Shown here in pieces: positions 46,644 to 63,880 of a stretch of 64,000 nucleotides of DNA. Source of the stretch: Candidatus Pantoea floridensis (lineage in GTDB: Bacteria; Pseudomonadota; Gammaproteobacteria; Enterobacterales; Enterobacteriaceae); contig NZ_OCMY01000001.1 of assembly GCF_900215435.1 (NCBI RefSeq), positions 3,348,001 through 3,412,000 of the forward strand, in the 5' to 3' direction. The notes below the pieces were generated by a model that had not been told where the DNA came from, searched no databases, and was given only the letters and a program-made list of their open reading frames with translations. The first letter of the stretch is position 1; every line of letters begins with the position of its first letter. Made by a program: the position numbers and the translations under genes.

Positions 46644-46718
46644 TATGACTCGGGGTGCCCCTGTAACACAGGGCTGAGATACACCCGCTGACCTGATCTG
46701 GATAATGCCAGCGTAGGG
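46644..46718 (+). repeat. attL: TPP riboswitch aptamer core, left copy
   Basis: Contains all thi-box elements: ACTCGGGGTGCCC, CTGAGATACACCC, and CCTGATCTGGATAATGCCAG then CGTAGGG. It is 75 bp long and identical to the right copy apart from one extra base in the P3 loop (46667); the last 51 bp are identical. Beyond GGG the sequence is GGCTACTTT, which cannot pair with the 5' TGACT strand, so P1 appears absent here. A hairpin GCATGAA/TTCATGC lies just upstream. Confidence 0.9.
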
Positions 46719-46737
46719 GGCTACTTTCCCTTTCCCT

Positions 46738-46763
46738 TCATATAGATAAAGATATTTCCATCT
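46738..46763. repeat. Left arm of an imperfect inverted repeat flanking the att core
   Basis: The reverse complement of 46738-46763 reads AGATGGAA...ATCTATATGA and matches 63781-63805 (AGATGGAA...ATCTATATGA) at about 22 of 26 positions. In the circular element these arms would flank the core symmetrically, as integrase binding sites do. It also contains AGATAAAG, found again at the right end. Confidence 0.55.
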
Positions 46764-48076
46764 TGTTTTCATTCACTACTGATACAAGATTAGGAACAGC
46801 TTTGTTATCTAAACGTATTCGTTACACCTTCAAACGCAGCTCAATCTACTACGTTCAATTCTCTCTCCCGGAAGGAAAGATGTTTAGGAGATCTCTGGAC
46901 ACTGATAGCCACAGGGAAGCTAGCGCATTGATGATAGCTTTAATGCCTCAGCTCCTAATGGTTAAGGGGGGCTTGTCTTCCTCTGAAGAGTTCAACATTG
47001 CCATCAGTTCGTTGATTAAAAATAGGATGGTCAAGAGGGCAGACAGAGCGCTTCCTCCTCCAGTGGCTAAGCCAGCTCCCATTATTGTTGAACCTCCAGC
47101 GTTCACGCTTGGTGCTGCATGGAATCAATACAAAGCCCAGCGAGGGAGCAATTGGACAATAGCCATAGCTTCAGCTAATGACCGGTACATTGAGCCATTA
47201 CTGGCTGTATTAGGTGATGGGAGCGATGTAGAGAGGATTAGTAAACGGGATATAAATAACGTGATGGAAGCAGTGGAGGGGCTGCCTAAACGAGTTGTAC
47301 AGCCTTACAGGGCCATGACTATTCAGCAGCTATTAGCCTGTGACGATGTAGCACAGGAGGATCTGATAGGCACTGAAGCAATACACAAACATCTCAAGCT
47401 GTATAAATCTCTGTTCAAAACGTTCCTGACAGATGAGAAGGGGATATTAACAAAATCTCCCACTGACGGTGTAACAGCTCCTCCATCCTCTAAAAGATTT
47501 GGTGCCTATTCAGTTGGAGAGATGCGCTCGTTTGTCTCTTACGCAATCAATCATGCTGATGGATGGCTCAAGTGGATCATCTTATTGCTGGCATACACTG
47601 GCGCTAGACGTGGAGAGATTGCAACGCTCACTAAATCTCAGGTTTGTTTTGATGATGATAGCATTCGACATTATCTTCTCATTACTGACGGTAAGACTGA
47701 TAACGCAGCTAGGCAAGTTCCCATACATCAACATCTTATTGAGCTTGGTTTCCTTGAGTTTGTCGAAAGGCGCGACCACCATTTATTCCTTGAAGTGTCA
47801 GGCTCGAACATGAATAAGATTAGTAAGGAGATGGCGGTGCTTAGGGAGAGGCTGAACATTCCATACAGGGACATACACAATCAGCGCCGCATAGTGCACA
47901 GCTTCAGACATAGTGTTGTCACTGCTGCCTCTGGATGGGTGAATAACATTGCTCATTTACAACAGGTAATAGGGCACGAGAAGACGGGGACAGGCATCAC
48001 AGCTAGATACATGCATACCTTCCCATTGAACACCGTAAGCCATGTCATTGATAAACTTAACTGGATGATCATGTGA
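46763..48076 (+). CDS. Tyrosine recombinase/integrase of the element
   Basis: A 437-residue phage-type integrase. Catalytic residues are Arg282 (TGARRGEI), a beta-hairpin Lys (TDGKTDN), His379-x-x-Arg382 (HSFRHS), a GHEKTG box and nucleophile Tyr416 (ARYMHTF). The N-terminal part (TFKRSSIYYVQFSLPEG) resembles DUF6538-type DNA-binding regions of such integrases. The TTG at 46763 has no good ribosome site, so the true start is uncertain. It lies 45 bp from the left aptamer and is on the same strand as the thi promoter. Confidence 0.9.
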   Translation: MFSFTTDTRLGTALLSKRIRYTFKRSSIYYVQFSLPEGKMFRRSLDTDSHREASALMIALMPQLLMVKGGLSSSEEFNIAISSLIKNRMVKRADRALPPPVAKPAPIIVEPPAFTLGAAWNQYKAQRGSNWTIAIASANDRYIEPLLAVLGDGSDVERISKRDINNVMEAVEGLPKRVVQPYRAMTIQQLLACDDVAQEDLIGTEAIHKHLKLYKSLFKTFLTDEKGILTKSPTDGVTAPPSSKRFGAYSVGEMRSFVSYAINHADGWLKWIILLLAYTGARRGEIATLTKSQVCFDDDSIRHYLLITDGKTDNAARQVPIHQHLIELGFLEFVERRDHHLFLEVSGSNMNKISKEMAVLRERLNIPYRDIHNQRRIVHSFRHSVVTAASGWVNNIAHLQQVIGHEKTGTGITARYMHTFPLNTVSHVIDKLNWMIM

Positions 48077-48240
48077 TTTGATTAAGCTCACGTTTGAAGT
48101 AGATAGTGATAGTTGATTAGAAAATAATCTTGCAAAGCATCTCTAAATGTTAGGTAATGTTAATTGTTGTTTGGGATGTTTGTTCATGGAAGATCGTCAT
48201 TTAATGCTTAAAGAAAGTTACTTTTAGAAGGAATTAAGAA

Positions 48241-48447
48241 ATGCCAAGTGACCATGAGTTAGTTAACTTTTCTCAAGACTACGAATTAAATTATGTATTA
48301 AATAAAGTAGGAAAGCGCCAGACAGAGACTAATCGTGCCGCCCTTCGTAAGCTCGGTGCTGAGCTCAAAAATCAATTAGGTAGGGCCACCCTCACCCATA
48401 GCCAATTATATCAGCATGTGAAAAACAGACTTGCTCTTTTAGAGTGA
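48241..48447 (+). CDS. Small protein, faint DUF3606-like pattern
   Basis: A 68-residue acidic-basic helical protein containing NFSQDYELNYVLNKVGKRQ. The order YEL-Y-K-G recalls DUF3606, but this is weak. A ribosome site AAGGA precedes the ATG by nine bases. It is followed 39 bp later by the 220-aa gene and may be cotranscribed. No function can be given. Confidence 0.55.
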   Translation: MPSDHELVNFSQDYELNYVLNKVGKRQTETNRAALRKLGAELKNQLGRATLTHSQLYQHVKNRLALLE

Positions 48448-48472
48448 TTTGAAAAGGGAAAGGATTCCCACT

Positions 48473-48487
48473 TATTGAGACTCAATA
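48473..48487. promoter_or_regulatory. Perfect 15-bp palindrome at the start of the 220-aa gene
   Basis: TATTGAG-A-CTCAATA is a perfect 7-1-7 palindrome that ends on the A of the ATG at 48487 and covers the ribosome site. The form fits a dimeric repressor operator. Confidence 0.5.
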
Positions 48488-49149
48488 TGTCTAAAGATCT
48501 TGAAGTACCTAAAGAGACTGGCAAAGACTACGTCCACACAGCATTCAAAACAGCTTTAGGTGAGGTGCCTTTAGCTGGAGGCGCTTTAGTTGAAATTTTC
48601 TCAGCAGTTATAGAGTCCCCATTTCAGAAAAGAAAAATAGAATGGATGCATAGAGTTGTAGATGCAATTGAAGAGCTTCAAGAAAAAGGGCTTAAAGTAG
48701 ATGAGTTAAGAGAAAACGAACAGTTTATCTCCGCTGTATTCTACGCATCTCATCTCGCTATGAAGACCCATCAAGAAGAAAAGTTGCAAGCTCTCAAAAA
48801 TGCTATCATGAATATAGCGCAAGGGTTTGAAATAGATGAGTCAATACAGCAGATTTATTTAAATTACATCGACCAGTTTACTGTTCTTCATGTGAAAATC
48901 CTTCGCTTTGCTTTAAGTAGGAAAGTTTCACCAAATATTATGATGGGATCGTTAAAGCCTATTCTTATATCAACATATCCTGAACTTGATAGAAAGGAAG
49001 GGTTAGTGAATCAAATATGGAAAGAACTTTATAATTCTGGTTTGATATCTGTCGATTCTCTTCAAGGTGGGCTCTCGTCGCAAGGGTTAGGGCAAAAATT
49101 TACCACTCAATTGGGTGACAATTTCCTTAGATTTATTGAAGAGCGTTAA
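48487..49149 (+). CDS. Hypothetical protein with glycine-rich N-terminal segment
   Basis: A 220-residue, largely helical protein. An N-terminal segment GEVPLAGGALVEIFSAVIE is followed by SPFQKRKIEWMHRVVDAIEE, a layout seen in widely distributed uncharacterised proteins. The C-terminal half looks like a winged helix (PELDRKEGLVNQIWKELYNSGLIS). The ATG at 48487 is preferred over a TTG at 48475. Position beside the integrase is typical of accessory or defence cargo, but that is inference only. Confidence 0.6.
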   Translation: MSKDLEVPKETGKDYVHTAFKTALGEVPLAGGALVEIFSAVIESPFQKRKIEWMHRVVDAIEELQEKGLKVDELRENEQFISAVFYASHLAMKTHQEEKLQALKNAIMNIAQGFEIDESIQQIYLNYIDQFTVLHVKILRFALSRKVSPNIMMGSLKPILISTYPELDRKEGLVNQIWKELYNSGLISVDSLQGGLSSQGLGQKFTTQLGDNFLRFIEER

Positions 49150-49511: not shown

Positions 49512-49619
49512 AACCTAATTCGCTATTTACTTATACTACCTGATTCGTTAATTCTCAAACTGCCCCTTATCCTGACTAACGCTAGTATCTGTGTATATAC
49601 TAATTCGTTAATTAATCAG
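49512..49619. repeat. Left cluster of TTAACGAATTAGGTA repeats
   Basis: Three copies in the reverse orientation (CCTAATTCGC at 49514-49523, CTACCTGATTCGTTAATT near 49537-49554, ACTAATTCGTTAATTAAT near 49599-49616). They lie just past the 3' end of the resolvase gene. Confidence 0.65.
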
Positions 49620-50158
49620 CTCAATACCTTGTGCACAGTGGTGCGTGAGATAGAGAGCTGCTTACTAATGGCTAGTTTGTTCATTCCTTCAGCGTATAAC
49701 TTACGGATAGAGGCGTGAAGCTGTTCATCAGGTTTAGGGCCAAAGGTAACCCCACGTTCCATTGCTGCTCTCTTACCTTCGTTAGTACGCTCTAGAATAC
49801 GCTTACGTTCAAATTCACCAACAGCAGCAATTACAGTGTAGATAACACGGCCTATATCAGAATTAATATCTGTCTGGCCCAAGTCCATACACACTAAGCC
49901 AACACCCTTAGCCTTCAGCTCATCAGCAATAGACAGTGCATCACGTGTATTACGCGCTAAGCGGTCTAGCTTCATCACAATCACTGTATCCCCTGCTTGT
50001 ACATCAGCAAGCATACGCATTAGCTCAGGCCTCTCAGCATTCTTACCTGAGATGTTCTCTTGAAATACGCGCTCACAGCCAAGCTCAGTCAATGCGGCTA
50101 CCTGTAACCCTGTATTCTGTTCCTGCGTACTTACGCGGGCGTATCCGTATTTCATCAC
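49616..50158 (-). CDS. Small serine recombinase (resolvase/invertase family)
   Basis: A 180-residue serine recombinase. The catalytic domain begins YGYARVSTQEQN with nucleophile Ser10 and includes VIVMKLDRLARNTRDAL and GEFERKRILERT. A C-terminal helix-turn-helix reads MNKLAISKQLSISRTTVHKVL. This subgroup resolves multimers or inverts DNA. Repeats of a 15-16 bp motif lie at both its ends and could be its binding sites. Confidence 0.93.
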   Translation of the reverse strand: MMKYGYARVSTQEQNTGLQVAALTELGCERVFQENISGKNAERPELMRMLADVQAGDTVIVMKLDRLARNTRDALSIADELKAKGVGLVCMDLGQTDINSDIGRVIYTVIAAVGEFERKRILERTNEGKRAAMERGVTFGPKPDEQLHASIRKLYAEGMNKLAISKQLSISRTTVHKVLS

Positions 50159-51417: not shown

Positions 51418-53253
51418 TTAGCGCCCATTTGCCTCTGCGCCATTATTTGTGGTGGTGGGGTTGCTATTCGATTCACCAAAGAAATCTGATTCGTAGCGTT
51501 TAAACTGTTTATCAAAATCTTCATTCCCTTCCAGATGCGCAGCAGCACGAACGGTCTTGTTAACCAGAGGAGATATTTTCTGATTTAAATCGCTCGCTTT
51601 CGCAATTACAGCCGGGTTTCCCTCATACCCCTTTTTAGGGCGGAATGTGAGAGAGCCATTGCGGAAGGTATATTCTAATGCGCCATCGGCTGCGCTCTGC
51701 TGTTGCTCCACATTAGCAAAGCCTACGTTGTATTGAGATTTTTTAGCCGTATCCACTGTGAAGCCAGTAGTTACCTGTGCATCTTTCCAAGCCTGTTGAA
51801 TAACAGGAGAGAGCTTATCCGTGTAGTTGGTTCCAATGACATTCTCAATGTTAGCCGATACACTTTCATCCACAGTGCCGCCCAGCTGCTTATATTTCAA
51901 AAATTGAGGGGAGGCTAAGAAATCCATTACATTGTTGAGCTGATTAGGCGTCTTTTGTGAAGATGCGAAATCTACAGTGCCAGACAGAATAGCATTTACA
52001 TGCTGATGGAGTTCGCTCTGGGTTCCCTTAACATCATCCACAATAGGGGATTTGCTGGAGAGGGCGTCAATAGTGGATTTAAGAATGTCAGTATGGGTTT
52101 TAGTATCAGCCTTATCTGCCGCACTGTTAGAGGTGGGATTATAATTGTACCCCTTCATGATTTCATCGTACTTATCCATTAGCTGCGGAGTTACACGGTT
52201 AATCACACTGGCCCCAGCTGGGCCAAGCGTCTTAGCAAGCGCTAAAGGAGTGGCATACTTAGGGTCGGCAGCAAAAGGAAGGAGGGCTTTAGCCTGAGCG
52301 CTGTCAATCTGGTGCTGATATACATCCGCTGAGATCTTGCCTGACGCTAAGTCAGAGCTGGCCTTATACAGGTCCCCGAATGGCTTTGTTAATCCATCTA
52401 CATAATCACTTCCCGCAATACCGCGATATTGCATGAGCTGGCTTTGAAACTGCTGCTGTAGCTCTGTGATGGCATTAACTTTCTGCTCTGGAGTCATTAC
52501 CGCGTTTTGCTGGATAGATGTAATTTGTGCCCTCTGTCGGTCATATTCAGACTGTACAGCGCTATTAAGGCCATTACGCACTTGCAACTGGTTAGTCTTC
52601 ATCTTTGCTTCCATCACAGCATTGGCACGCTGTGCATTAGCATTAGCAATGTTAGCTGTCTTCTCTTGTAGGGAAAGTTTCTGGTTCTGTATGGATAGTT
52701 GCTTCCCATAGAAATCCATCTGCTGTGCGGCATGTTCCTGTTGCCGCATCCCATCTACTTGCTGCTGTTGCTGCTCAGCGGTCATGCCTGCATGAATCCA
52801 ACCAGAAGCGGTAGCTTTCTTAAGGTCTGCTTGATATTGCTGCTCAACTGCGGTGCCCTGCGCCAATGTATCGCCCAAGCCAGCGCTCTTAGCTAAGCCG
52901 CTATTAAGCTGAATAAGATCTTCTGTCATTTCCGGATGATTGGCGATGAGCTGATTAAACTTGGCACGCTGTAAACGTTGTGCATCAGTTTGCTTGAGAG
53001 AGCCTTGGTCTACAGCGGCATTAAGTTGGGTGATGTAAGAAGCAAACCCTGCGGTGGCTTGGTTCTTCTGCTTAACCGCTTCCTGTTTCTGGTTGTTAAC
53101 GTACATACCCAAGCCAGTTGAAAGTAGCTGGGTTAGTCCCTGTCCTACTGCTGCCACTGTACCCGCATTACTAACTGGTGCTACTGCCTGTTGTGGAGAG
53201 GCGTTGAATTGTGGAGCGCCTACATCCTGTGTCTCGAAGATGCCTTGAGCCAT
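51418..53253 (-). CDS. Internal virion (DNA ejection) protein-like, 611 aa
   Basis: A 611-residue, Gln/Ala-rich, mostly helical protein. Residues ~160-300 (MTAEQQQQQVDGMRQQEHAA onwards) look like long coiled helices. The N-terminus carries GTVAAVGQGLTQLLSTGLG. Composition and place before the 1592-aa protein's relatives fit the mid-sized internal virion protein of T7-like podoviruses, which forms part of the tunnel for DNA entry. SD AGGGG upstream. Identification is by character, not by a catalytic motif. Confidence 0.6.
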   Translation of the reverse strand: MAQGIFETQDVGAPQFNASPQQAVAPVSNAGTVAAVGQGLTQLLSTGLGMYVNNQKQEAVKQKNQATAGFASYITQLNAAVDQGSLKQTDAQRLQRAKFNQLIANHPEMTEDLIQLNSGLAKSAGLGDTLAQGTAVEQQYQADLKKATASGWIHAGMTAEQQQQQVDGMRQQEHAAQQMDFYGKQLSIQNQKLSLQEKTANIANANAQRANAVMEAKMKTNQLQVRNGLNSAVQSEYDRQRAQITSIQQNAVMTPEQKVNAITELQQQFQSQLMQYRGIAGSDYVDGLTKPFGDLYKASSDLASGKISADVYQHQIDSAQAKALLPFAADPKYATPLALAKTLGPAGASVINRVTPQLMDKYDEIMKGYNYNPTSNSAADKADTKTHTDILKSTIDALSSKSPIVDDVKGTQSELHQHVNAILSGTVDFASSQKTPNQLNNVMDFLASPQFLKYKQLGGTVDESVSANIENVIGTNYTDKLSPVIQQAWKDAQVTTGFTVDTAKKSQYNVGFANVEQQQSAADGALEYTFRNGSLTFRPKKGYEGNPAVIAKASDLNQKISPLVNKTVRAAAHLEGNEDFDKQFKRYESDFFGESNSNPTTTNNGAEANGR

Positions 53254-53264
53254 AATAATTCCCC

Positions 53265-53483
53265 TTAGTGCAGATTAATTTTGGTAGAGGTGGTGAGATA
53301 GCTTATATTGCTGAGCAGTTCGTTATGTTTCTTATCCCACATAGCCAGAGCCTCACGGCATACATTCAGCATTGGCACATCTGAAATATCTGTAGCACGG
53401 AGAATGGAGCACCAGCGGCTAATCTCGTATTCAGCCTCTGTCAAAGCTGCTGAGGTATCTTTCAATAATTGTTTTGTGTTCAT
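53265..53483 (-). CDS. 72-aa hypothetical protein
   Basis: A helical protein starting MNTKQLLKDTSAALTEAEYE. It has a good ribosome site (AAGGGAAAA) and ends 11 bp before the 611-aa gene. No family recognised; it may be a small virion or regulatory protein. Confidence 0.6.
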   Translation of the reverse strand: MNTKQLLKDTSAALTEAEYEISRWCSILRATDISDVPMLNVCREALAMWDKKHNELLSNISYLTTSTKINLH

Positions 53484-53582
53484 CGTTCTGTTTTCCCTTG
53501 AATAGATTTTTTATTGTTTTTATAGATATATGGGGGAGGAGGAGATTTAAGATAACGAGCAGAAAATAGGACAGTTCCATCA

Positions 53583-54056: not shown

Positions 54057-54092
54057 CTCTGCGACTCCTTAACTACCTACTTCCGAATTAAA

Positions 54093-54524
54093 TCACTCTT
54101 GTTCTTTACGAGAGCGGAAGAAATCAATAGCAGCCTGTGTACTGTGCATTGGCCCCTGCGCCTTAGAACGGTCACGCATACGCTGAGCAAATTGTTTCTG
54201 AGCTTCAATAGTGCGGAGTTCTGAGTTATGTTCCTCCCGCATACGCTTGTCCATAGTTCTTGCTTCTGTACCCTCACGAATACGGCGCATATACTCCGCA
54301 CGCTGTGCTTCTGTTTCCAGTTTGGAATAGGGGACATCGGGGAGGGCGCTGGCTTTCTTCTTAGCTGCCAATTGGCGAAGAATTGCAGCCCCTGCTTCCT
54401 CAGCATTACAGCCTGTCTGAGCCATTAATTGCTGCATGATTTCCTGAATATTAACATCCGTGCTGTGTTCTGAAGGTGAAGGGGTGTTAGCTGATTGGCT
54501 GTTGTCAAATAGTGATGTAGACAT
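54093..54524 (-). CDS. 143-aa hypothetical coiled-coil protein
   Basis: A charged helical protein. A Ser-rich N-terminus is followed by EIMQQLMAQTGCNAEEAGAA and a long Arg/Glu-rich helix (RAEYMRRIREGTEARTMDKR). Ribosome site AAGGAAAAAGA. Such proteins occur as scaffolding or DNA-packaging accessories in phages, but nothing specific is recognised. Confidence 0.55.
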   Translation of the reverse strand: MSTSLFDNSQSANTPSPSEHSTDVNIQEIMQQLMAQTGCNAEEAGAAILRQLAAKKKASALPDVPYSKLETEAQRAEYMRRIREGTEARTMDKRMREEHNSELRTIEAQKQFAQRMRDRSKAQGPMHSTQAAIDFFRSRKEQE

Positions 54525-54542
54525 TCTTCTTTTTCCTTTTTA

Positions 54543-54698
54543 TTATTTATAATTACGGCGGTAAGCGCCATGTAAAATTGTTTGTGTCCATGAGAAAGTA
54601 TAACGGAATGAGTATTCCAGCTCTTGCAGCCAATAGGCATTATGTCGCGCTCTCTCTGCCTTAAACGCCTCTACAGCCTTTTTTGAATAGCGAGCCAT
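54543..54698 (-). CDS. 51-aa small basic protein
   Basis: MARYSKKAVEAFKAERARHN, then AYWLQELEYSFRYTFSWTQT and a tail LHGAYRRNYK. GGGGGA precedes the ATG by five bases, and the gene fills the gap between the HTH protein (stop at 54712) and the 143-aa protein. It is basic and aromatic-rich; no family recognised. Confidence 0.6.
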   Translation of the reverse strand: MARYSKKAVEAFKAERARHNAYWLQELEYSFRYTFSWTQTILHGAYRRNYK

Positions 54699-54711
54699 AC
54701 ATTCCCCCGGA

Positions 54712-54927: not shown

Positions 54928-55008
54928 AGTATTTTTCTCGATGTTTTTATTATTTTTTAGAGGGGAGGAGAACAGGGCAGCCCTAGAAACTGCCCATATT
55001 CTTTTTTA

Positions 55009-58000
55009 TTATTTAAATTTATTAATGTCTTTAACTTCTTCTTCTGAGAAGCTCCATTTAGCAATAGATAGGAGAGCTTCACGCTGTTCAGGCTTTAGAG
55101 TAGCTTGGTTAATCCAGCCAATAACATCTCCGCGTGTAGCCCATCCAGAAGCACTCATGATGGCATCGAATAAGCGGCGGTCCCCACCTTCGATTTGCTT
55201 CATCATATTAGCCATCCAACGCTTATGAGCTGCTACATTGTTAGGGAAAGCGGACATCCCATATTGTGACATACGGATGAGGTAGTCTTGTTGCTCAGCT
55301 GTAAGCCCCTCAGCTACTAAACGCCGTGACACATCTCCGAAATATTGGTCAATGTCTGCGTTGTATTTGTCATGCTCCGCCTTAATGTCATCCATCACCG
55401 CAAAGCTACGTGCCTGAGCAAGGCTCTGGAAGCCTAAGAGCTTGGCAAATGCTTCTGGTGTTGTAACGTTGTCTCGGGTCATGGCTCCTGTTGCTGAATA
55501 TTCGCGCTGGTACTTGAGCATCAGCCAGGCTTTGTAGCCGTTAGAGAATCCAGAGGAGAGATTTCCTACATCCATCATCACTGTGTGCCATTTGTCTACG
55601 CTGGTATCAGATGACGGGTCTGTCACTAAACCAGAAGCATAGCCAAAGTCACGGATAAGATTGGTGATGCGTGGATTGCTCCCCATCATCAGAGAGCCTA
55701 CAGGGCTATTAGCAATAGCCTCCCCTGTACCGTCGCTAAAGATGTGCTTCACCATGTCAACCACCCCTTGAGGATCATAAGGGTTTACACCGCCACCCCA
55801 ATCAACTTGAGATTTCTGGCCCCATACAGCCTCAATCATTCCATTGGTTAGGACGTTAGATAAGCCACCTACAATCAATTCGCGTTGTGTTTCATCTTCT
55901 GGCAAGTGTTCAGAAAGCATTTGTGCAAGCCAATCTGGGGCCCCAAACATGCCTACAGCAAACGTTGCCATGCCTACTCGTGCTTTAGCAGGGATAGCCC
56001 GATTGAACAACACGCCAATCATTTTCAAAGGAACTTGTCCATACTGCCCAATAACAGACAGCTCATTATGGTTAAGCGCAACCTGCCCAGAGCGGGAGAA
56101 GTTACCAGTGAATTGACGGGCATCAGAGGCTACTTGTTTCAGCAGGTCAGCGGGGAGGGTTGTCCCTTTACCGGCCTTAACACTTGCCTTCAATGCTGCG
56201 TCATAGTGAGCGAAGTAGGAAGAAGCCTGTACGAAATACTCACCGGCGCTAAAGCCAATCTTACGAGGAGCAGAAAGTGTGGTTTTCGTTCCCTTTGTAA
56301 TAGCATTAGCGGCCCGGCTGGCATACCCTACAGATAAATCCGTATTCGTCCTCAACATCCCAGCAATCATTTCATGCCGGTTAATCCCCTTCGTAATCCC
56401 CGATTTCTCCATGGCATCCTTCATGGCCTTGAATTCTGCCTTACTCCTGCCAAACATTCGGTAGTAAGCATCAGGGGCGTTAGGGTTAAACTTGTCAATC
56501 ATCAAGAGCGTTGCATCATCGAACAGATGAGCAATGTATGTTGGATGGCGTCCTAGTGACATAGACGCTTGGGCAAACTGAACAGCTAATTGTCGTAAGG
56601 GATTGAGGGCAATCATTGTGTAGAATGAAAGGGAGCGAAGGAAGCCAGTAGGAGAGAATGTTTCCCCGGCCCTTACTGCTCTTTCCCCTAATGCCAGCGC
56701 CTTACTGTCGAACTTAACAGCCGCCCCGCCTAACCAATCAGCAGATTGTGAGAAGATTTTCTTTGTAACATCGTCAATAGCGTTGACATAACCATTCTCC
56801 ATTGCCCTGATATGCTCGTACATAGCACGGGCTGCTGCTCTCTGTTTACCGCTTCCTGTAATCTCAGAGATATTAGAAGGATAGTCAGGGCGACCATTTC
56901 GTTTAGGCATCACATCGCTGTAAGTGGAAAGCAGGCGCTGCTTGCTCGTCTCAATCCAGTCACGATAGGCCACACGAGAAGAGACACTCTCAATGCTGCT
57001 GTTCATTGCCTGAATAGGAGATTGGATATGAGCGCCATCAAGCTCTGTGTTAGAGCCAATAGCATCCTCAAGGCGCTTACCACGTACACGTTGAGCTGAT
57101 AAGCCACCTGCGCTCATTGCCTGAGTGTTCGCCTTGTCGTAGTCTCCCCCTTTTAAATCTCCCCTTACACGATATTCAGAGGGGCGTGTTCGTTGATAAC
57201 GCTCTATGGCTTTAGCAGCAGATAAGCTGTCAGGGGCTGTTGCAAATGCCTGCCAGATGTCTTGCCCATGCTCATCCCTTACAGGAACACCATCAGCATC
57301 TACGAGCTTACGCTCAATGAAATGGGGATTAGCATAGCGAACTGAGTAATAGCCTTTACGGTAGGACATGACTGTATCGTCATCAGACAGAGCACGGAGG
57401 TATGTCCCACGAGCGTCATTATCATTGAGCACATGGAGGATGTTACGACCATCAATCTCAATTGGATGAGCAAGCTCTGCCACTCCTGCATTACGAGAAC
57501 TTAAAGCTGCACGCTCCTCTGGTGTGAGGATGCGCACTATGTCCTTTGCTGCGTCATATACAGAAGTGTTATTGCGTACACTATTGAGAGAGACAGGGCG
57601 TGCTACAACATCTAAGCCAGCATCCTTATACACCATACGACCAAAGCCGAGGGTCTTGTAGCTTCTCACCATATCTGCGTTAGTAAGGTGCCAGAGGGTG
57701 TCTTGTGTCTTCTTGAATTGTTCGAAGGTGCGAATTTCGGCATCATTAAAACCACGACCGGCTAAGTCGGAATAGTTGTAGCTAATCCCCTTAACGTTGG
57801 CTTCTTTGATGGCGTCAATGATAGCATTCTTGCGCTCCATAGCCATTGGCTGTAGGGAGTCAGTGAAGCCTTTGGCTACCTCTACAAGCTTCTCGCTTAA
57901 CACATCCTTTTTCAAATCAGAGAGCACAGCGCCCTTCATGTATTCGGGGTGGAACATGGCCTCTGGCGCTACGAAGGTAGAAGTAAGAGAGCCGCGCCCT

Positions 58001-59787
58001 GATGTGCCATAGCCTACGTCCGAATAGTTAAGCAGATTACGCTTCACATCAAACAGCTGAAATTGGCTGTCGTCTAAATCTCCGGCGCTGTATTTGTAGT
58101 TTTGCTTAATCTGCAACAGGTAGTCACCACCTAAATCCCCCTCAGCGTTCTTAACCTGAGAATAGGGAACCGGGTGATATGTGTCCCCATCACGTACAAG
58201 GATGTTGATGTCCTTCTCATCAATGCCGTATTTACGTAAAGCAAATTGAGCCTGCTCTGCTGCATCCTTAACACTTGTCCAGCCATTGTCAGAGGGCCCA
58301 TACACTGCTGCAATGTCTAAGCCTGTGCCATCGTCTGCTGCACCAACCGTTGTCATTTCCTTGCGGGTGACTAAGCCTGTTGCATTCTGGAAATCGTGGG
58401 TGACATTAGCATCAAGGCGGCGCTTCTCAACAGTGGAGAGGTTTGGATAAGCAGCTGAGCGCACTAAATCCAGCGTGTCATTGTCTGGCATGTACTGGAA
58501 GTCGTCATAGCGTGAAGGGTCATACACTTTACTCTGTACTGTTCCATCAGCCACTTTAGGCTGTGCAGCCATGTAACCTGCAAAAGCATTGTCTTTCCCT
58601 GTACCTGTCATCGCTAAAGCGAATTCATCTGTTTCATCCTGAGCAATACCAGCCACAACACGGCGTGCTTTATCTGGGTTTGCATCCTTAAGAATATCCA
58701 TAGGGGCGGAGGGCTGTTGTTGTGCCATAAGCTGGCGTTGCTGAATAGATCTCTCCGCGTCTGTAAGGCCCTCTGAGGCACGCGCGGCGCTAGCTGCTGC
58801 ATCTGCTTCTCTTACAGTTTTTCCCACGCCCAATGCTCTCCCAAGCGCTCGGAATGGCAGAGCTAAGCCCGACATATCCAGTAGGCCGCCTAAGTTATCA
58901 ATCACTTCATCTGTAACTGTGTAAGCACCTGACTGTGTAACAGCTTGCAGAGCGTGGAGGTTGGCGTTGTCTTTCTCTGAGGGGAGGAGAATAGTGCGGC
59001 CTTCACTGTTAATCGTTGTAGCAATTCCATCCATCACAGCCATACGCTGGTCAAGGGGGAGCGTATTGAATTTATCAGCAAGTGCTGCCTTAGAGGAGCC
59101 TTGCAGGAAGAAGGAGGCAATCACGCCTTTAGTATCATTACTAAGGCTAGAGTAGAGCTGGCTAGATTTAATTGAGGACACGCCCGGAATGATATTCTCA
59201 GCCATTCCTGTTGCTGTGGCTGTTAGCCCATTCTCTTCCTGTGCCATTGCTGTAGCGTTATAAATGGCCTGCTGCTGTCGTTTAAACTGAATAGCCTTAT
59301 CCATGCCAGCAGCAAACAAATCGCGGCTTACAGTGGCTTCTGCGGTCTCGTTAGAATTGGTTTCACCGGCTTCCTGTGTACCCAGCATTCCCTGAGCTGT
59401 TAATAGGTTGCTCTGAGCAATACGGCCTTCCTGATGGTTCTGGAGAATAGCCTGCTTGGTCATGTCCGGTACTTGTGGGTCAGCAAGAGATTCATACATA
59501 GCCTGCTGGAAAGCTGAGGCTTCCTGTGTTTTACGCGCATCTAATATCTGATTCTGTGTGGGGCTGTAGCCCATCTGAGAATGTTCAGAGGAGATAGCAT
59601 CGTAGGTTGGAACTACCTGATTTGGGTCAGTTGGTGCATTCAGAAGGGCGGTAGTGGCTGCGCTGTTCCTCACTGATGGACTCGACACGACAGCCTGAGC
59701 TGGTGCCGGTGTGCCTGTGGTGGTGTCTGAGAAATCGTTGAGAGAAGCAGGTGTGTTATCTAAGAAGTCGTCTAAGGTATATGCCAT
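55009..59787 (-). CDS. Giant internal virion (DNA ejection) protein-like, 1592 aa
   Basis: The largest gene in the window. The N-terminal ~120 residues are Thr/Pro/Ala/Gln-rich and look flexible, the middle is mixed, and the C-terminal third has two strongly hydrophobic stretches near residues ~1045-1065 and ~1280. Length, layout and position fit the largest ejection protein of podoviruses (T7 gp16-type), which spans the periplasm during DNA entry. I see no lysozyme signature. A leader AATAATAATAAGGAAAA precedes the ATG. It is intact and free of frameshifts, arguing against decay. Confidence 0.65.
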   Translation of the reverse strand: MAYTLDDFLDNTPASLNDFSDTTTGTPAPAQAVVSSPSVRNSAATTALLNAPTDPNQVVPTYDAISSEHSQMGYSPTQNQILDARKTQEASAFQQAMYESLADPQVPDMTKQAILQNHQEGRIAQSNLLTAQGMLGTQEAGETNSNETAEATVSRDLFAAGMDKAIQFKRQQQAIYNATAMAQEENGLTATATGMAENIIPGVSSIKSSQLYSSLSNDTKGVIASFFLQGSSKAALADKFNTLPLDQRMAVMDGIATTINSEGRTILLPSEKDNANLHALQAVTQSGAYTVTDEVIDNLGGLLDMSGLALPFRALGRALGVGKTVREADAAASAARASEGLTDAERSIQQRQLMAQQQPSAPMDILKDANPDKARRVVAGIAQDETDEFALAMTGTGKDNAFAGYMAAQPKVADGTVQSKVYDPSRYDDFQYMPDNDTLDLVRSAAYPNLSTVEKRRLDANVTHDFQNATGLVTRKEMTTVGAADDGTGLDIAAVYGPSDNGWTSVKDAAEQAQFALRKYGIDEKDINILVRDGDTYHPVPYSQVKNAEGDLGGDYLLQIKQNYKYSAGDLDDSQFQLFDVKRNLLNYSDVGYGTSGRGSLTSTFVAPEAMFHPEYMKGAVLSDLKKDVLSEKLVEVAKGFTDSLQPMAMERKNAIIDAIKEANVKGISYNYSDLAGRGFNDAEIRTFEQFKKTQDTLWHLTNADMVRSYKTLGFGRMVYKDAGLDVVARPVSLNSVRNNTSVYDAAKDIVRILTPEERAALSSRNAGVAELAHPIEIDGRNILHVLNDNDARGTYLRALSDDDTVMSYRKGYYSVRYANPHFIERKLVDADGVPVRDEHGQDIWQAFATAPDSLSAAKAIERYQRTRPSEYRVRGDLKGGDYDKANTQAMSAGGLSAQRVRGKRLEDAIGSNTELDGAHIQSPIQAMNSSIESVSSRVAYRDWIETSKQRLLSTYSDVMPKRNGRPDYPSNISEITGSGKQRAAARAMYEHIRAMENGYVNAIDDVTKKIFSQSADWLGGAAVKFDSKALALGERAVRAGETFSPTGFLRSLSFYTMIALNPLRQLAVQFAQASMSLGRHPTYIAHLFDDATLLMIDKFNPNAPDAYYRMFGRSKAEFKAMKDAMEKSGITKGINRHEMIAGMLRTNTDLSVGYASRAANAITKGTKTTLSAPRKIGFSAGEYFVQASSYFAHYDAALKASVKAGKGTTLPADLLKQVASDARQFTGNFSRSGQVALNHNELSVIGQYGQVPLKMIGVLFNRAIPAKARVGMATFAVGMFGAPDWLAQMLSEHLPEDETQRELIVGGLSNVLTNGMIEAVWGQKSQVDWGGGVNPYDPQGVVDMVKHIFSDGTGEAIANSPVGSLMMGSNPRITNLIRDFGYASGLVTDPSSDTSVDKWHTVMMDVGNLSSGFSNGYKAWLMLKYQREYSATGAMTRDNVTTPEAFAKLLGFQSLAQARSFAVMDDIKAEHDKYNADIDQYFGDVSRRLVAEGLTAEQQDYLIRMSQYGMSAFPNNVAAHKRWMANMMKQIEGGDRRLFDAIMSASGWATRGDVIGWINQATLKPEQREALLSIAKWSFSEEEVKDINKFK

Positions 59788-60127: not shown

Positions 60128-60314
60128 TTGCTTTGTTCCCCGCTGGTTTAATATGACCGCCATCTACCAGATTTAAATAATGGGAGACTATCCGAACCAT
60201 ATAAGCGTTTCGGCTGATGTCCCCTTTAATTGCATCCACACGTCTAGCCAGCTCAACAGGGAGCAGGCAACCTTGTGGCTTCTTCAAATATTCTTTACCA
60301 TTTTTATTTACCAT
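60117..60314 (-). CDS. Ribbon-helix-helix-like protein 1
   Basis: A 65-residue protein with CLLPVELARRVDAIKGDISR then NAYMVRIVSHYL, the pattern of CopG/Arc-type dimers. Its start overlaps the end of the 324-aa gene by seven bases, so translation is coupled. A role in replication or operon control is inferred. Confidence 0.55.
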   Translation of the reverse strand: MVNKNGKEYLKKPQGCLLPVELARRVDAIKGDISRNAYMVRIVSHYLNLVDGGHIKPAGNKANEQ

Positions 60315-61282
60315 GGCTCTCCCGCCTCATTTGTGTAAGTGCCTACCTGTACGGGAATATTCCACCAATCAGGTTCAGCATCAGAATGTTTTTCTTTCTT
60401 GTTAACTACTGAATCAATCCACGCATCATCGGCATCTTGGAATACTTCCTCTTGCTCGTAAGGAGAGAATGGGAATTCGTTATCTATTGCCTCTAGCACT
60501 TCGCATTCAGCAGGAAGTTTGATTGCTTCAATGCGTTCCAGCATACGGCCCGATTGCTCCTTCACTTGATTAACATAAGCCTGTGCTTCAACATCTTTAT
60601 GAGCTAAAGCTAATCCGCGTAATACTTCCTTATCGCCTTCTGTGAATTCCACAGGACACATCACAGCGTTAGAGAGGCCATCAGAGATCTTGTAAGCCCC
60701 GCTGTCAGCTTCAAAGCAAAAAGCCATACCAGAATCAAATTTAATTATATCTGCGTTCTCTGGCTGTTGTAGGCGGTTAATTACGCTCTCGGCTGCTTTG
60801 TTAACAATCTGCGCATAGCGTTCCTCAACAGTCTGCCCAACATAAAACGCTCTACGCTTGTTCAGGTTTTCCATAGTACGCTTTGTGGTAATCTCATCGC
60901 TTTTAAGGATAAACATTAACTGAGCTACAGGAATACGCGTAGAGGTTGTGGTCGCATTAGCCGCTGAATAGAGCAGGTCACCCATCTTGGCGCCTAATGA
61001 ACACTCATTTGTATCTTCGTTATATGCCGCATTAGCAAAAATTGACGCGTAAGGATTGTGGATAGCTTTGCTGGGGCGACCACGTTTGGTCTTTGGTGCT
61101 TCCTGATTAAACGAATTAGGTAGTATTACCCCTTCATTGCCCATATCTCCATATAGTGCCAAGTCAACTGCTGAAGAAACATCATACGCATCAGGAAGGC
61201 AGGGCAGGGAATGATTAACAATTTCTCCCGTCTCTGTATCAACAGCGTTCATCTGTCCATCAATCATCATCATCTTAATCAT
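60308..61282 (-). CDS. 324-aa hypothetical protein with AT-hook-like motif
   Basis: A soluble protein with an AT-hook-like KTKRGRPSKA near residue 65, a helical middle (RIPVAQLMFILKSDEITTKR) and an acidic C-terminus. No catalytic motif is visible. Copies of the TTAACGAATTAGGTA motif lie 22-66 bp upstream of its start and once inside the gene, so it or a neighbour may bind them. It could be a replication initiator or accessory. Ribosome site AAGG six bases before the ATG. Confidence 0.55.
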   Translation of the reverse strand: MIKMMMIDGQMNAVDTETGEIVNHSLPCLPDAYDVSSAVDLALYGDMGNEGVILPNSFNQEAPKTKRGRPSKAIHNPYASIFANAAYNEDTNECSLGAKMGDLLYSAANATTTSTRIPVAQLMFILKSDEITTKRTMENLNKRRAFYVGQTVEERYAQIVNKAAESVINRLQQPENADIIKFDSGMAFCFEADSGAYKISDGLSNAVMCPVEFTEGDKEVLRGLALAHKDVEAQAYVNQVKEQSGRMLERIEAIKLPAECEVLEAIDNEFPFSPYEQEEVFQDADDAWIDSVVNKKEKHSDAEPDWWNIPVQVGTYTNEAGEPW

Positions 61283-61348: not shown

Positions 61349-61405
61349 TTAAGGCCAAAAAGTGAAAGTGTACGCAGCAATAAGATAGAGCAAGAATACA
61401 TCCAT
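61349..61405 (-). CDS. Possible 18-aa hydrophobic peptide
   Basis: MDVFLLYLIAAYTFTFWP. Its ATG overlaps the stop of the winged-helix gene (TAATG), with GGAGGT six bases upstream. The coupling and ribosome site are good, but the peptide is very short and could be chance. It may act as a leader peptide for the 324-aa gene. Confidence 0.35.
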   Translation of the reverse strand: MDVFLLYLIAAYTFTFWP

Positions 61406-61740
61406 TAAACCACCTCCAGAGCTGGGGTGTTTACAATGTAAAAACTTCTGCTCCCATCTTCGTACTTATTCACTATTCCCATCTGCATAAACTTTTGAAT
61501 GATGAATTGAGAATTGTTAAATAGGTCTGTGCCCAGCCCTAACATTTCGTCTATGCGTTGATAACTCAGGTACACTCTGCCAAACCTATTCTGAAGATTA
61601 GCAATATGAGAAAACACTAATTTCATATCTCCGCTAAAGCGGCATACTTCTGTGCTATGTGTGAAGTGTCTTACTGCGTGAAAGTGGTATGGATTTATTC
61701 TTGATTCGAATGCGGATGCATTCTTAGATGCGTTAGCCAT
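61405..61740 (-). CDS. Winged-helix-like protein, possible replication initiator/regulator
   Basis: A 111-residue protein. Residues ~40-100 (GRVYLSYQRIDEMLGLGTDL, then NSQFIIQKFMQMGIVNKYED) read like a winged helix with a beta wing. I choose the ATG at 61740 (AGGAA upstream); an in-frame ATG at 61860 lacks a ribosome site. It is the first gene of the minus operon, fitting a regulator or initiator. Confidence 0.5.
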   Translation of the reverse strand: MANASKNASAFESRINPYHFHAVRHFTHSTEVCRFSGDMKLVFSHIANLQNRFGRVYLSYQRIDEMLGLGTDLFNNSQFIIQKFMQMGIVNKYEDGSRSFYIVNTPALEVV

Positions 61741-62065
61741 AGTTTCAAGTTCCTGTGAAGGATTAAGTAACCTGTACGCCAGATGAGGTGTATCAGGAAA
61801 GGCCCTTAATATTGCCTGTTGTAGGAGTGAGCATCCATGCTCTAACAGAACAACGTACATTACGTAATGGAAGGGGCCATTACGCAGTAATTAGAAAGAG
61901 CTGAGGATAAAGGAGTTACCCAGCTCTTGAGGGGCATATTCGACTATGCGAGTAGTCTTGTTTTCTTGTCGAAGGAAACTCAGCAGATTGTTGAGCTTCA
62001 TCCCATATGCCAGAGGAGGAAGAAAGGGAAGTAATGCGTTCTACTTTTTCATTACCCTATAATTA

Positions 62066-62370: not shown

Positions 62371-62628
62371 GAGCAAGACAGACGAACGAAGTAGCGGGAG
62401 GAATTGTCCTTGTGAGTGAGCTGGCGAGCGAATGCTTTTAGTTTTTTTTTAATTGGGGAGAAATCTTACATATCACTTTCTTAATTCTATTATGATTATG
62501 ATAGCATTCGTAGAATGGCCTCAGGCTTCACAGGAAGCGTTCTGCTGAGTTTAAATGCAAAAGGTAACGGAATATATTGGGAGAAGGTGAAAGCGCTCAG
62601 GATTGATTCTAGAGCGCTACAGAGGGTA

Positions 62629-62976
62629 TCACTGAATATTTAATTTCAAGCTAGTTGATTGTTGCCTCAATACCCTCAGACGTACAAGATTAACAATAGC
62701 CTTGCTCAGTACAGAATTCAACAAAACGCATATCACCATTGTTGAGAAGAACACCCCTAAGAATGCAATCCCGCTTAGAACAGGCCCCAAGAAGCTTGGA
62801 GTAATTGAGTGATACATCTGGTTGAAACTAAGCCACAGAATGAAGCACAGCAAATGAGAAATGAATTCTCCAATACAAGCTTGCTTCCCGTAGTTGAATG
62901 AGCACTCACCCCAATCACCGTAGTACGATACAACATTTCCCGTTATAACTTCACCGCACCTTGGAATTAAGCTCAT
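62629..62976 (-). CDS. 115-aa membrane protein
   Basis: A protein with two hydrophobic segments (HLLCFILWLSF and GPVLSGIAFLGVFFSTMVICVLL) and a basic C-terminus. Ribosome site GGGAA before the ATG. Starts 45 bp after the lipoprotein gene on the same strand, so the two may work together. No family recognised. Confidence 0.55.
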   Translation of the reverse strand: MSLIPRCGEVITGNVVSYYGDWGECSFNYGKQACIGEFISHLLCFILWLSFNQMYHSITPSFLGPVLSGIAFLGVFFSTMVICVLLNSVLSKAIVNLVRLRVLRQQSTSLKLNIQ

Positions 62977-63021
62977 TTTGTTTCCCTATAGAATGATGTA
63001 GCCAAATAGTTTTTAAGACAA

Positions 63022-63531
63022 TCAATATAGCTGGGAAACGTAATTATTGATGGGTTCAGCAAGAAGATCTTGCGGATGGTCTCCGCCCCAAGTTACTAAC
63101 TTACTCTCGCCATTGAGAATGGTTGAATTGATTAAAGTTAAATTGGAAGCTTTATAAACCGAAATTTTAACTTCAAGCTTATCTCTTTTCATAGACCATT
63201 CTGTAGCTCTATCTTCCCAATGCAATATTTGAGGGACAACTAAATAGCCTTCTGTTGTAGTTGCCTTAGATAAGCATTCAACATCTCCGCAGTTGTTAGA
63301 GATCCTCACCTTTTCAGAGTAACGTACAAATGCAGCTTGTAGAACGCTAGCCGTTTCCTGTCCTGAGCCATGGTAAAAAGTTGTGCCATAGAAACCATCT
63401 TTAGGAACAGCGATAGAAACAGGCATATCCTGTTTTAATTTCTCTGTGCTGGTCTTCACATCAGTGCTTTTATAATGTGCTGAGCATCCTGTGAGAGCTA
63501 ACGCCCCCATTATTAATAAAACTCCCTTCAT
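63022..63531 (-). CDS. DUF4823-type lipoprotein
   Basis: A 169-residue lipoprotein with signal peptide MKGVLLIMGALALTGC (lipobox LTGC, Cys16). Conserved stretches AVPKDGFYGTTFYHGSG, VVPQILHWEDRATEWS and TWGGDHPQDLLAEP match the DUF4823 family as I remember it. The function is unknown. Likely cargo that changes the host envelope. Confidence 0.75.
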   Translation of the reverse strand: MKGVLLIMGALALTGCSAHYKSTDVKTSTEKLKQDMPVSIAVPKDGFYGTTFYHGSGQETASVLQAAFVRYSEKVRISNNCGDVECLSKATTTEGYLVVPQILHWEDRATEWSMKRDKLEVKISVYKASNLTLINSTILNGESKLVTWGGDHPQDLLAEPINNYVSQLY

Positions 63532-63717
63532 CCCTTTCCCCAGATAGTTAAATAAATGTTGCTTAAACCTTCCTAAGAATGTTCCTAATTATTGCTCTGC
63601 CGCTTCTCTTATAGCAAGCGGATTATTAACCACCCTGTATAGATGAAGAGAGGACAGGTGAGATAAAGGGTGTGATAAAGCTGGTATAAAACTGTGATAA
63701 ATCTCCAACGCGTAAAA
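63532..63717. promoter_or_regulatory. Right-end region with TGTGATAAA repeats and a possible extended -10
   Basis: TGAGATAAA (63659-63667), TGTGATAAA (63671-63679) and TGTGATAAA (63693-63701) are in direct orientation; the last two are 22 bp (two helical turns) apart, as arm-type integrase or excisionase sites often are. TGG-TATAAA at 63682-63690 is an extended -10 pointing toward thiM. The leftmost part should hold the lipoprotein promoter. Confidence 0.45.
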
Positions 63718-63772
63718 GAATGCGGTCAGGCATCTGAGCCCGGCTTGTGCCAACAAGTCACTTCCCGTAAGC

Positions 63773-63805
63773 TGCTATATAGATGGAAGTAATACATCTA
63801 TATGA
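63773..63805 (+). promoter_or_regulatory. Element-side 5' flank of the thiM aptamer: extended -10 and hairpin
   Basis: TGC-TATATA (63773-63781) is a possible extended -10. ATATAGATG / CATCTATAT (63777-63803) forms a 9-bp hairpin directly before the aptamer, corresponding in place to the GCATGAA/TTCATGC hairpin before the left copy. The stretch 63781-63805 is also the right arm of the inverted repeat with 46738-46763. Confidence 0.5.
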
Positions 63806-63880
63806 CTCGGGGTGCCCCTGTAAACAGGGCTGAGATACACCCGCTGACCTGATCTGGATAATGCCAGCGTAGGGAAGTCA
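63801..63880 (+). promoter_or_regulatory. attR: complete TPP riboswitch aptamer upstream of thiM
   Basis: Carries the thi-box (CTGAGATACACCC, CCTGATCTGGATAATGCCAG, CGTAGGGAAGTCA). P1 is formed by TGACT (63803-63807) and AGTCA (63876-63880), and P3 by GCCCCTG / CAGGGC. GTCAG-ATGC-CTGAC just downstream is a hairpin that competes with P1 and is a likely expression platform. Direct-repeat part 63801-63874. It should lower thiM expression when TPP is plentiful. Confidence 0.9.

What the first reader, a model, noticed from the sequence alone, without database searches (positions are those of the whole stretch)
46644..63874. A mobile element uses the TPP riboswitch aptamer of thiM as its attachment site
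Seen: a 75/74-bp direct repeat at 46644-46718 and 63801-63874 (last 51 bp identical) bounds a 17.2-kb AT-rich block that starts with an integrase gene. The repeat is the TPP aptamer core. The left flank carries a thi-like promoter and the right flank carries thiM. Known: integrases usually target tRNA, tmRNA or coding ends. A riboswitch is equally conserved and structured, so it is a logical target, but I know of no described class that uses one.
Basis: partly seen in the sequence, partly recalled or inferred. Interest (0 to 1): 0.95.

Follow-up and report, generated by a model that had tools for sequence, protein, structure and literature searches.

The report
Mobile elements that target a riboswitch
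A family of mobile DNA elements in Pantoea, E. coli and related bacteria sits inside the thiamine-sensing RNA switch in front of the gene thiM, where their own integrase likely put them, and each carries a replacement for the part of the switch it cuts off, which would keep the gene under thiamine control while the element brings in predicted phage-defence or virus-derived genes.

Summary
Two TPP aptamers (Rfam; 60.1 and 74.7 bits) bound a 17.2-kb low-GC block that starts with an intact tyrosine integrase gene; thiM and thiD follow. It is one of a family: a scan seeded with five such integrases found 25 loci in 24 genomes of 14 Enterobacterales genera. All 25 (21 without the seeds) have a TPP aptamer 85-107 bp upstream of the integrase. 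In 20 of 24 genomes a second aptamer follows on the same contig and strand; in four the contig ends first. Empty single-aptamer sites exist: E. coli ETEC1732 matches K-12 in 400/400 bases on each outer side. 174 of 5,426 complete E. coli genomes carry aptamer plus integrase. In Rahnella woolbedingensis the crossover is confined to 12 bp, ATGCCAGCGTAG. The element supplies the aptamer's 5' part: the thiM-side copy regains stem P1 (4-5 of 5 pairs in 27 of 27), the integrase-side copy mostly does not (1-4 of 5 in 28). One printed precedent turned up: a Vibrio cholerae island in the cobalamin riboswitch of btuB. Continued thiM regulation and TPP control of the integrase are untested.

The parts
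44566..46134 (+). Host gene left of the element (522-aa pyridine-nucleotide-disulphide oxidoreductase with thioredoxin domain, ahpF-like); also left of the empty thiM site in six relatives
   Evidence: Pfam; synteny; the gene name ahpF is recalled
46641..46735 (+). attL: TPP aptamer, host 5' part and element 3' side; stem P1 lost (2 of 5 pairs)
   Evidence: Rfam 60.1 bits; pair count
46705..46716 (+). 12-bp core ATGCCAGCGTAG within which crossover is placed (left copy)
46802..48076 (+). Tyrosine integrase, 424 aa from a TTG start, no internal stop; ARRGEI, HxxR, GHEK and RYMHTF motifs present (reading them as catalytic motifs is recalled)
   Evidence: PF00589, PHROG integrase; tree
48475..49149 (+). 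224-aa protein of unknown function (weak phrog_11520 match)
49616..50158 (-). Serine recombinase, resolvase/invertase type; 12 distinct relatives in the 30 held stretches of other elements (13 stretches, two of which show the same gene)
   Evidence: PF00239, phrog_125
51418..53253 (-). 611-aa homologue of the protein encoded next to the giant virion protein in Erwinia phage Pecta (Zobellviridae), 36% identity
53583..54056 (-). 157-aa cargo protein with relatives in the alder81, Trabulsiella, A4 and R. ecdela elements
54093..54524 (-). 143-aa cargo protein with relatives in the alder81 and A4 elements
55009..59787 (-). 1592-aa protein, homologue of the 1580-aa protein of phage Pecta (36.7%); a Klebsiella phage relative is annotated IVP-D-like protein
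   Evidence: phrog_18427
60308..61282 (-). 324-aa protein of unknown function, with relatives in the Pantoea alder81 and Rahnella ecdela elements
61405..61860 (-). 151-aa protein of unknown function, with a relative in the alder81 element
63022..63531 (-). 169-aa protein of unknown function, 95% identical in the alder81 element; its N-terminus looks like a lipoprotein signal (my reading)
63671..63704 (+). Two direct copies of TGTGATAAA(G/T)CT near the right end, candidate integrase arm sites
   Evidence: the arm-site role is inferred
63718..63737 (+). 20-nt exact reverse complement of the host thiM leader (63878-63897), carried inside the element's right end
63744..63773 (+). Promoter-like stretch (TTGTGC-17-TAAGCT) in the element's right end, position conserved among related elements; score not above shuffles
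63798..63892 (+). attR: complete TPP aptamer in front of thiM, element 5' part plus host 3' part; P1 5 of 5 pairs
   Evidence: Rfam 74.7 bits
63861..63872 (+). 12-bp core ATGCCAGCGTAG (right copy)
63926..64000 (+). Start of thiM (runs on beyond the window to position 64711, then thiD)

Best explanation
The 17.2-kb block is a mobile element that sits inside the TPP riboswitch aptamer of thiM, where its own tyrosine integrase likely inserted it by recombination within a 12-bp core (ATGCCAGCGTAG) shared by element and host, and the element carries a copy of the aptamer's 5' part, so that thiM would stay under TPP control. Shown by sequence: the two aptamers, the integrase tied to this site in 25 of 25 loci (four of them seeds), single-aptamer empty sites, junctions inside the aptamer, and the thiM-side aptamer regaining stem P1 while the integrase-side aptamer mostly lacks it. 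Inferred: that this integrase performs the reaction; that attP is [element right end, aptamer 5' part, core, integrase leader]; that excision restores the empty site; that thiM is then transcribed from a promoter in the element's right end and remains TPP-responsive. The strategy is that of tRNA-targeting islands moved to another RNA: a conserved, structured RNA-coding stretch serves as target, and attP restores what is cut off. Here the 5' side is restored, because the gene lies downstream.
For: 25 of 25 integrase loci in 24 genomes of 14 genera have the aptamer 85-107 bp upstream of the integrase start; four loci are the seeds themselves, chosen for their two aptamers, so the independent count is 21 of 21. 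20 of 24 genomes have the second aptamer on the same contig and strand, 3.4-17.4 kb away; the other four integrases lie at contig ends, each with a thiM-side aptamer on another contig. A thiM homologue lies downstream of attR in 27 of 28 elements; the 28th abuts a second element. E. coli ETEC1732 against the K-12 empty site: 400/400 bases left of and including the attL core and 400/400 right of attR, against 129/400 and 91/400 on the inner sides. Crossover confined to 12 bp in R. woolbedingensis: attL has the Rahnella-type loop ATTAT, as in 11 of 11 other Rahnella loci fetched (two further genomes not fetched); attR has ATAAT. P1 pairs: attR 5 of 5 in 23 and 4 of 5 in 4 of 27; attL 1-4 of 5 in 28. 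attR 71.2-78.4 bits, attL 46.5-62.8 in the window and the 24 genomes. In the tree 28 site integrases are separated from 11 relatives without a nearby aptamer by a 100/100 branch. E. typographi has two elements in tandem between three aptamers.
Against: No excision, circle or integration was observed; no experiment exists here. The attR promoter-like hexamers do not beat shuffles (0 of 28 at p<0.1). Pantoea G020 and G007 keep two aptamers without an integrase ORF of 90 aa or more, and the GD03673 integrase is in pieces; I read these as decayed copies. One attL (Mangrovibacter) still has 4 of 5 P1 pairs. In three class-2 elements and both E. coli cases the bases between P3 and the core are host-like on both sides although P3 at attR is foreign, which a single exchange in the 12 bp does not explain unless attP had already adapted or gene conversion occurred. 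ThiM downstream of the Winslowiella element aligns over only 120 aa. No member was found in viral contigs or phage records, so how it moves between cells is unknown.
Confidence: 0.94

Rival explanations
1. The duplicated aptamer is an ordinary regulatory duplication: two thi-regulated transcription units separated by unrelated acquired DNA, with no role in integration.
For: TPP aptamers are naturally repeated in these genomes; 4-6 matches per genome, the att copies included.
Against: The left copy precedes an integrase in every family member found (25 of 25) and keeps at most 3 of 5 P1 pairs in 27 of 28; empty sites have one copy; E. coli flanks match the empty site base for base up to the aptamer.
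Confidence: 0.02
2. The integrase simply recognises a 12- to 26-bp DNA sequence in the thiM leader; that it lies in a riboswitch is incidental, and preservation of regulation is not selected.
For: Only the thiM-type aptamer is used, not TPP aptamers in general: 2 of 6 in this genome hold the core. Recognition must be of DNA.
Against: Elements of three integrase classes carry a 5' aptamer part that re-forms P1 with the host's 3' strand in 27 of 27 attR junctions facing thiM, while attL mostly does not keep P1. This one-sided upkeep fits selection for a working thiM switch.
Confidence: 0.2
3. The block is a decayed prophage or several insertions that happened to land here, not a single integrase-borne element.
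For: It carries relatives of two phage Pecta virion-region genes, but no terminase, portal or capsid gene was identified among the proteins scanned.
Against: The Pantoea alder81 element (17.4 kb) has largely the same gene order, with intact 79-80% identical large genes and a 93% identical integrase; the Trabulsiella element has relatives of the two large proteins.
Confidence: 0.1

Closest known systems
Classical Vibrio cholerae genomic island GI-23 in the cobalamin riboswitch of btuB (PMC12409358; section 13 read whole, other parts in passages)
   Same: A defence-carrying island inserted in a riboswitch upstream of a vitamin-related gene.
   Different: Different riboswitch and host; one sentence on a single island; in what I read, no integrase family, crossover mapping or regeneration of the aptamer. 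I did not test whether its integrase is related.
tRNA/tmRNA-targeting genomic islands and prophages (TIGER/Islander, PMC12424338; passages)
   Same: Tyrosine integrase, direct repeat at both ends, a structured RNA-coding target, attP restoring the target; tandem insertion at one site (general features recalled, apart from the passages).
   Different: Target is a cis-regulatory riboswitch; the 5' side plus presumed promoter is restored; no tRNA present. The survey counts 33.8% tRNA/tmRNA, 43.4% coding, 22.8% intergenic; the word riboswitch is absent from its main text, so such sites may sit among 'intergenic'.
KplE1 prophage and others whose attL overlaps the integrase promoter (PMC2951348; passages)
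   Same: int lies next to attL and reads inward, so expression depends on what recombination puts in front of it.
   Different: There the target is argW tRNA; here a TPP aptamer that mostly lacks P1, and the host thi upstream region, end up in front of int.
SXT/R391 elements at the 5' end of prfC (recalled, from no call)
   Same: Integration at the front of a gene, with the element supplying a new upstream part.
   Different: prfC coding sequence is replaced; here a non-coding aptamer is rebuilt.
Gram-negative PICIs and helper-embedded satellites (PMC10111431; passages)
   Same: Small integrase-led islands of Enterobacterales with phage-derived genes.
   Different: Their alpA and pri genes were not looked for here; the virion-protein relatives come from Zobellviridae, and the site is thiM.

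Membership tests
Tyrosine recombinase / phage integrase family | Catalytic-domain profile match | tested here: met
   PF00589 38.4 bits over the 27.1 cut-off; phrog_1 E 4e-26
Tyrosine recombinase / phage integrase family | Arg, His-x-x-Arg, His/Trp, Tyr catalytic motifs in an intact frame | tested here: met
   ARRGEI 268, HSFRHS 366, GHEK 391, RYMHTF 402 and no stop; conserved in A1. Motif identity recalled
Integrative element inserted site-specifically | Direct repeat at both ends, one copy in the empty site | tested here: met
Integrative element inserted site-specifically | Excised circle and empty site in the same strain | not testable with these tools
   needs PCR or reads
tRNA/tmRNA-targeting genomic island | Target is a tRNA or tmRNA gene | tested here: not met
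   ARAGORN finds none in the window; target is RF00059
TPP riboswitch (RF00059) | Covariance-model match over the gathering score at both ends | tested here: met
   60.1 and 74.7 against 54.3; in relatives some attL copies fall below it (46.5-53.4 bits)
TPP riboswitch (RF00059) | Ligand binding and gene control | not testable with these tools
   not measured for attL or attR
Phage satellite | Dependence on a helper phage for packaging | not testable with these tools
   only virion-protein relatives seen
Complete prophage | Terminase, portal and major capsid genes | tested here: not met
   none of the ten window proteins scanned per library matched such families (other small ORFs not scanned); tblastn to the fetched 32 kb of Pecta, which holds those genes, matched only two window proteins

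The most novel reading that the evidence does not exclude
The element's attP is itself a TPP riboswitch module, so recombination swaps promoters: after insertion the host thi promoter and aptamer read into the integrase gene, while an element-borne promoter and rebuilt aptamer read into thiM. Thiamine status would then gate integrase expression and hence mobility, and the inverted copy of the thiM leader in the element's right end would act as an antisense tuner of thiM. With the cobalamin-riboswitch island of V. cholerae, this would make vitamin riboswitches a general class of attachment sites for defence islands.
Probability: 0.2. Interest if true: 0.93.

Novelty: new variant of a known kind. 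Interest (0 to 1): 0.82.

Why it matters
It adds riboswitches to the RNA features that integrases use as landing sites, for a whole integrase family found in 14 genera and, as aptamer plus integrase, in 174 of 5,426 complete E. coli genomes. It shows that an element can cut a metabolite sensor in two and rebuild it with a 5' part of another species' type, as in P. piersonii, P. ananatis, Winslowiella and Rahnella. It makes testable whether such hybrids still sense TPP. It also marks thiM as a place to look for anti-phage genes, since proteins matching PD-Lambda-2, TIR and OLD/AriA models were found there. Surveys that file such sites as intergenic would miss the class.

Tried and rejected
Rejected: a tRNA or tmRNA target (none). 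A plain gene duplication (empty sites). A known phage: two integrase queries have only matches under 30% identity in 50,697 phage records (3 records, 1), and no relative was confirmed in viral contigs; plasmid records give two matches of 40-43% at E 1e-20 or better.

Led nowhere or weakened: the promoter-like hexamers in element ends do not exceed shuffles (0 of 28 at p<0.1; on the attL side 6 of 28); only their conserved position speaks for them. Folding of the integrase leader gives no uniform switch: the core pairs with the integrase leader in most class-3 elements but stays in the aptamer in many others, so TPP control of int is left open. The inverted leader copy at the right end is significant in 22 of 28 (at most 1 of 100 shuffles as good), but the control, the attL-side upstream region, also reaches that level in 8 of 28; five of those eight look like old element ends, three do not. 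Its match to its own host's leader ranks 0-3 of 26 in the six class-1 elements but anywhere from 0 to 26 over all 27 tested. A survey of cobalamin riboswitches in 148 genomes gave same-strand pairs in some genomes that I did not resolve into duplications or separate operons; its list was cut.

Not followed: supplementary tables of island databases (not available); structure prediction (not needed for the claim).
Full report
OBSERVATION. The window lies at G000:C1:3348001-3412000 of a 5.45-Mb genome. Rfam finds TPP aptamers at 46641-46735 and 63798-63892. The repeat is identical over its last 51 bp. Between them lies a 17.2-kb block of lower GC (0.40-0.49 against 0.54) that opens with an intact tyrosine integrase gene. 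thiM and thiD follow the right copy. The 12-mer ATGCCAGCGTAG occurs only twice in the genome, once in each copy.

EMPTY AND OCCUPIED SITES. A DNA search of 99 relatives with the left aptamer and its flank showed seven of 59 same-genus genomes with two close aptamers on one contig and strand. I read all seven, plus six single-aptamer loci. In the single-aptamer loci the ahpF-like gene, one aptamer, thiM and thiD stand together. In the occupied ones the aptamers are 1.3-17.4 kb apart; an integrase gene follows the left one in five of seven (one of them in pieces), and two (1.3 and 3.4 kb) have no integrase ORF of 90 aa or more.

FAMILY. Five integrases, the window's and four from these loci (54-93% identical to the window's), were used to scan one genome for each of 84,980 species. 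63 stretches matched the peptide patterns, 25 encoded a relative, in 24 genomes: Pantoea, Trabulsiella, Rahnella, Cedecea, Enterobacter, Pseudenterobacter, Silvania, Klebsiella, Winslowiella, Atlantibacter, Erwinia, Franconibacter, Mangrovibacter and Citrobacter. The scan used the protein, not the site. 25 of 25 have the TPP core upstream, ending 85-107 bp before the integrase start. Four of the 25 are the seeds, which I had chosen for their two aptamers, so the independent count is 21 of 21 (one of these, Pantoea GD03673, was also already known to me). A second aptamer follows on the same contig and strand in 20 of 24 genomes; in the other four the integrase contig ends and a thiM-side aptamer is on another contig. 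Erwinia typographi has three aptamers with two elements in tandem. In all I compared 28 elements in 27 genomes.

A separate search of 394 genomes of the order found 17 with an integrase match at E 1e-30 or better; three have the aptamer (full-length members) and 14 more distant or partial ones do not, within the stretches fetched. In the tree, 28 site members (two from E. coli; the broken GD03673 copy left out, several others only as open pieces) stand apart from 11 outgroup integrases with 100/100 support; long outgroup branches make the outgroup order unsure. I call the main branches class 1 (the window, alder81, A4, Trabulsiella, R. ecdela, E. typographi 2), class 2 (8 rows, e.g. Citrobacter) and class 3 (13 rows, e.g. 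E. asburiae); P. piersonii stands alone beside classes 2 and 3.

E. COLI. The Citrobacter integrase with its aptamer is covered to 80% or more in 174 of 5,426 complete E. coli genomes (again 174 with an E. coli query); 57 of the 60 rows listed carry a riboswitch annotation under the match. A class-3 integrase is covered in 25 of 5,426 (27 with another class-3 query that included the aptamer). In ETEC1732 the order is rcnR, TPP riboswitch, integrase, cargo, TPP riboswitch, thiM, thiD. K-12 BW25113 has rcnR, one TPP riboswitch, thiM. The outer flanks match K-12 in 400/400 bases on each side, the inner flanks in 129 and 91 of 400. SCU-316 gives 391/400 on both outer sides.

WHERE THE EXCHANGE FALLS. 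Comparing attL and attR gives the stretch in which exchange must lie. The shortest is 12 bp in Rahnella woolbedingensis: attL keeps the Rahnella-type loop ATTAT, seen in 11 of 11 other Rahnella loci fetched (ten ATTATG, one ATTATA; two of 13 other genomes not fetched), while attR has ATAATG, and the sequences part again right after GTAG. Pantoea G007 gives 18 bp but its attL is decayed; Winslowiella gives 19 bp; Cedecea, P. ananatis, P. piersonii and E. asburiae 26 bp (plus 2 downstream in P. piersonii). This is the 3' strand of P5 and P4 in the Rfam alignment. The CTGG-ATAATG-CCAG stem-loop P5 overlaps it, and some class-3 element ends add an inverted repeat around it (GGATAATGCCAG CGTAGTC CTGGCGATTATCC, seen). 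That such symmetry is what the integrase binds is inference by analogy with tRNA stems. A complication: in three class-2 elements and both E. coli cases, bases between P3 and the core are host-like at both ends although P3 at attR is foreign. Adapted attP or gene conversion would explain it.

WHAT IS REBUILT. At attR the element's 5' strand TGACT meets the host's AGTCA or AGTCT: P1 has 5 of 5 pairs in 23 and 4 of 5 in 4 of the 27 elements that face thiM. At attL it has 1-4 of 5 in 28 elements, at most 3 in 27 of them. Rfam scores agree: attR 71.2-78.4 bits, attL 46.5-62.8 (window and 24 genomes). In P. piersonii, P. ananatis, Winslowiella and R. woolbedingensis the rebuilt thiM aptamer has a 5' part of another species' type. 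A ThiM homologue of at least 230 aligned residues follows in 26 of 27; in Winslowiella only 120 align. So the upkeep is one-sided, on the thiM side. That thiM is still TPP-controlled is inferred. A promoter for thiM must then lie in the element; TTG-17-TAAGCT or CATTAT-like pairs sit at class-specific places, but none beats shuffles.

AN UNEXPLAINED PIECE. The element's right end holds a partial inverted copy of the thiM leader: 20 nt exact in the window, 25 in Trabulsiella, 17 in Pantoea A4 where a host change is mirrored. Over aptamer and leader together 22 of 28 elements match at a level reached by at most 1 of 100 shuffles; the attL-side control does so in 8 of 28, five of which resemble old element ends. 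It could be a relic of an inverted site, a source of antisense RNA, or part of recombination. I cannot decide.

CARGO. The window's element and the alder81 element largely share gene order and carry relatives of two proteins that are adjacent in phage Pecta (Zobellviridae; 36-37% identity to the window's); Trabulsiella has both too. Terminase, portal and capsid genes were not seen among the proteins scanned, so a satellite or reduced prophage is likely. Others carry genes that match defence models: PD-Lambda-2 in P. ananatis, a TIR protein (PDC-S60) in ETEC1732, OLD/AriA-like proteins in SCU-316 and Pantoea GD03673; five window proteins sent to the same library matched nothing. Nine of 28 attL-side upstream regions resemble an element right end, which with the Erwinia tandem points to repeated insertion at one site.

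LITERATURE. I judged by listings (one search listed 20 of 56) and by passages of ten papers; the library lacks most subscription journals. One precedent for the idea: V. [quoted passage not shown] The paper that reported that island's Nezha and Gabija genes gives other flanks and its main text lacks the word riboswitch (PMC11559045, passages).

VERDICT. The finding is real and wider than reported: a family of integrative elements with the thiM TPP aptamer as attachment site. It works like tRNA-targeting islands but is not one of them. Shown: site, junctions, spread, P1 rebuilding. Inferred: reaction by this integrase, promoter supply, preserved TPP response. Untested: TPP control of int.

Noticed in passing
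63718-63737 against 63878-63897: A 20-nt exact inverted copy of the thiM leader in the element's right end; similar pieces in other elements, ranking 0-3 of 26 for their own host in class 1. Purpose unknown.
   Followed up: partly
51418-59787: Relatives of two proteins adjacent in phage Pecta (Zobellviridae), 1592 and 611 aa, in an element without identified capsid or packaging genes; possibly a satellite of such phages.
   Followed up: partly
49616-50158: A serine recombinase of resolvase/invertase type with 12 distinct relatives in 30 held stretches of other elements; its role is unknown.
   Followed up: no
L046:7190-9548, L100:18383-20998, L101:17628-19076, L048:5013-6464: Genes matching anti-phage models as cargo at thiM: PD-Lambda-2, TIR/PDC-S60, OLD/AriA-like.
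   Followed up: partly
L074, L076 (Erwinia typographi): Two elements of different integrase classes in tandem between three aptamers; 9 of 28 attL-side flanks look like old element ends.
   Followed up: partly
L101:19395-27594 (E. coli SCU-316): A thiM-site element annotated with a major capsid protein and a tape measure protein besides an ATP-dependent nuclease.
   Followed up: no
L087 (Winslowiella iniecta): ThiM downstream of the element aligns over only 120 aa, so thiM may be damaged there.
   Followed up: no
L045:12144-14901: A flagellin-like ORF (13393-14901) and a TnpB-like ORF (12144-13268), both named from their sequence only, lie inside the P. piersonii element.
   Followed up: no
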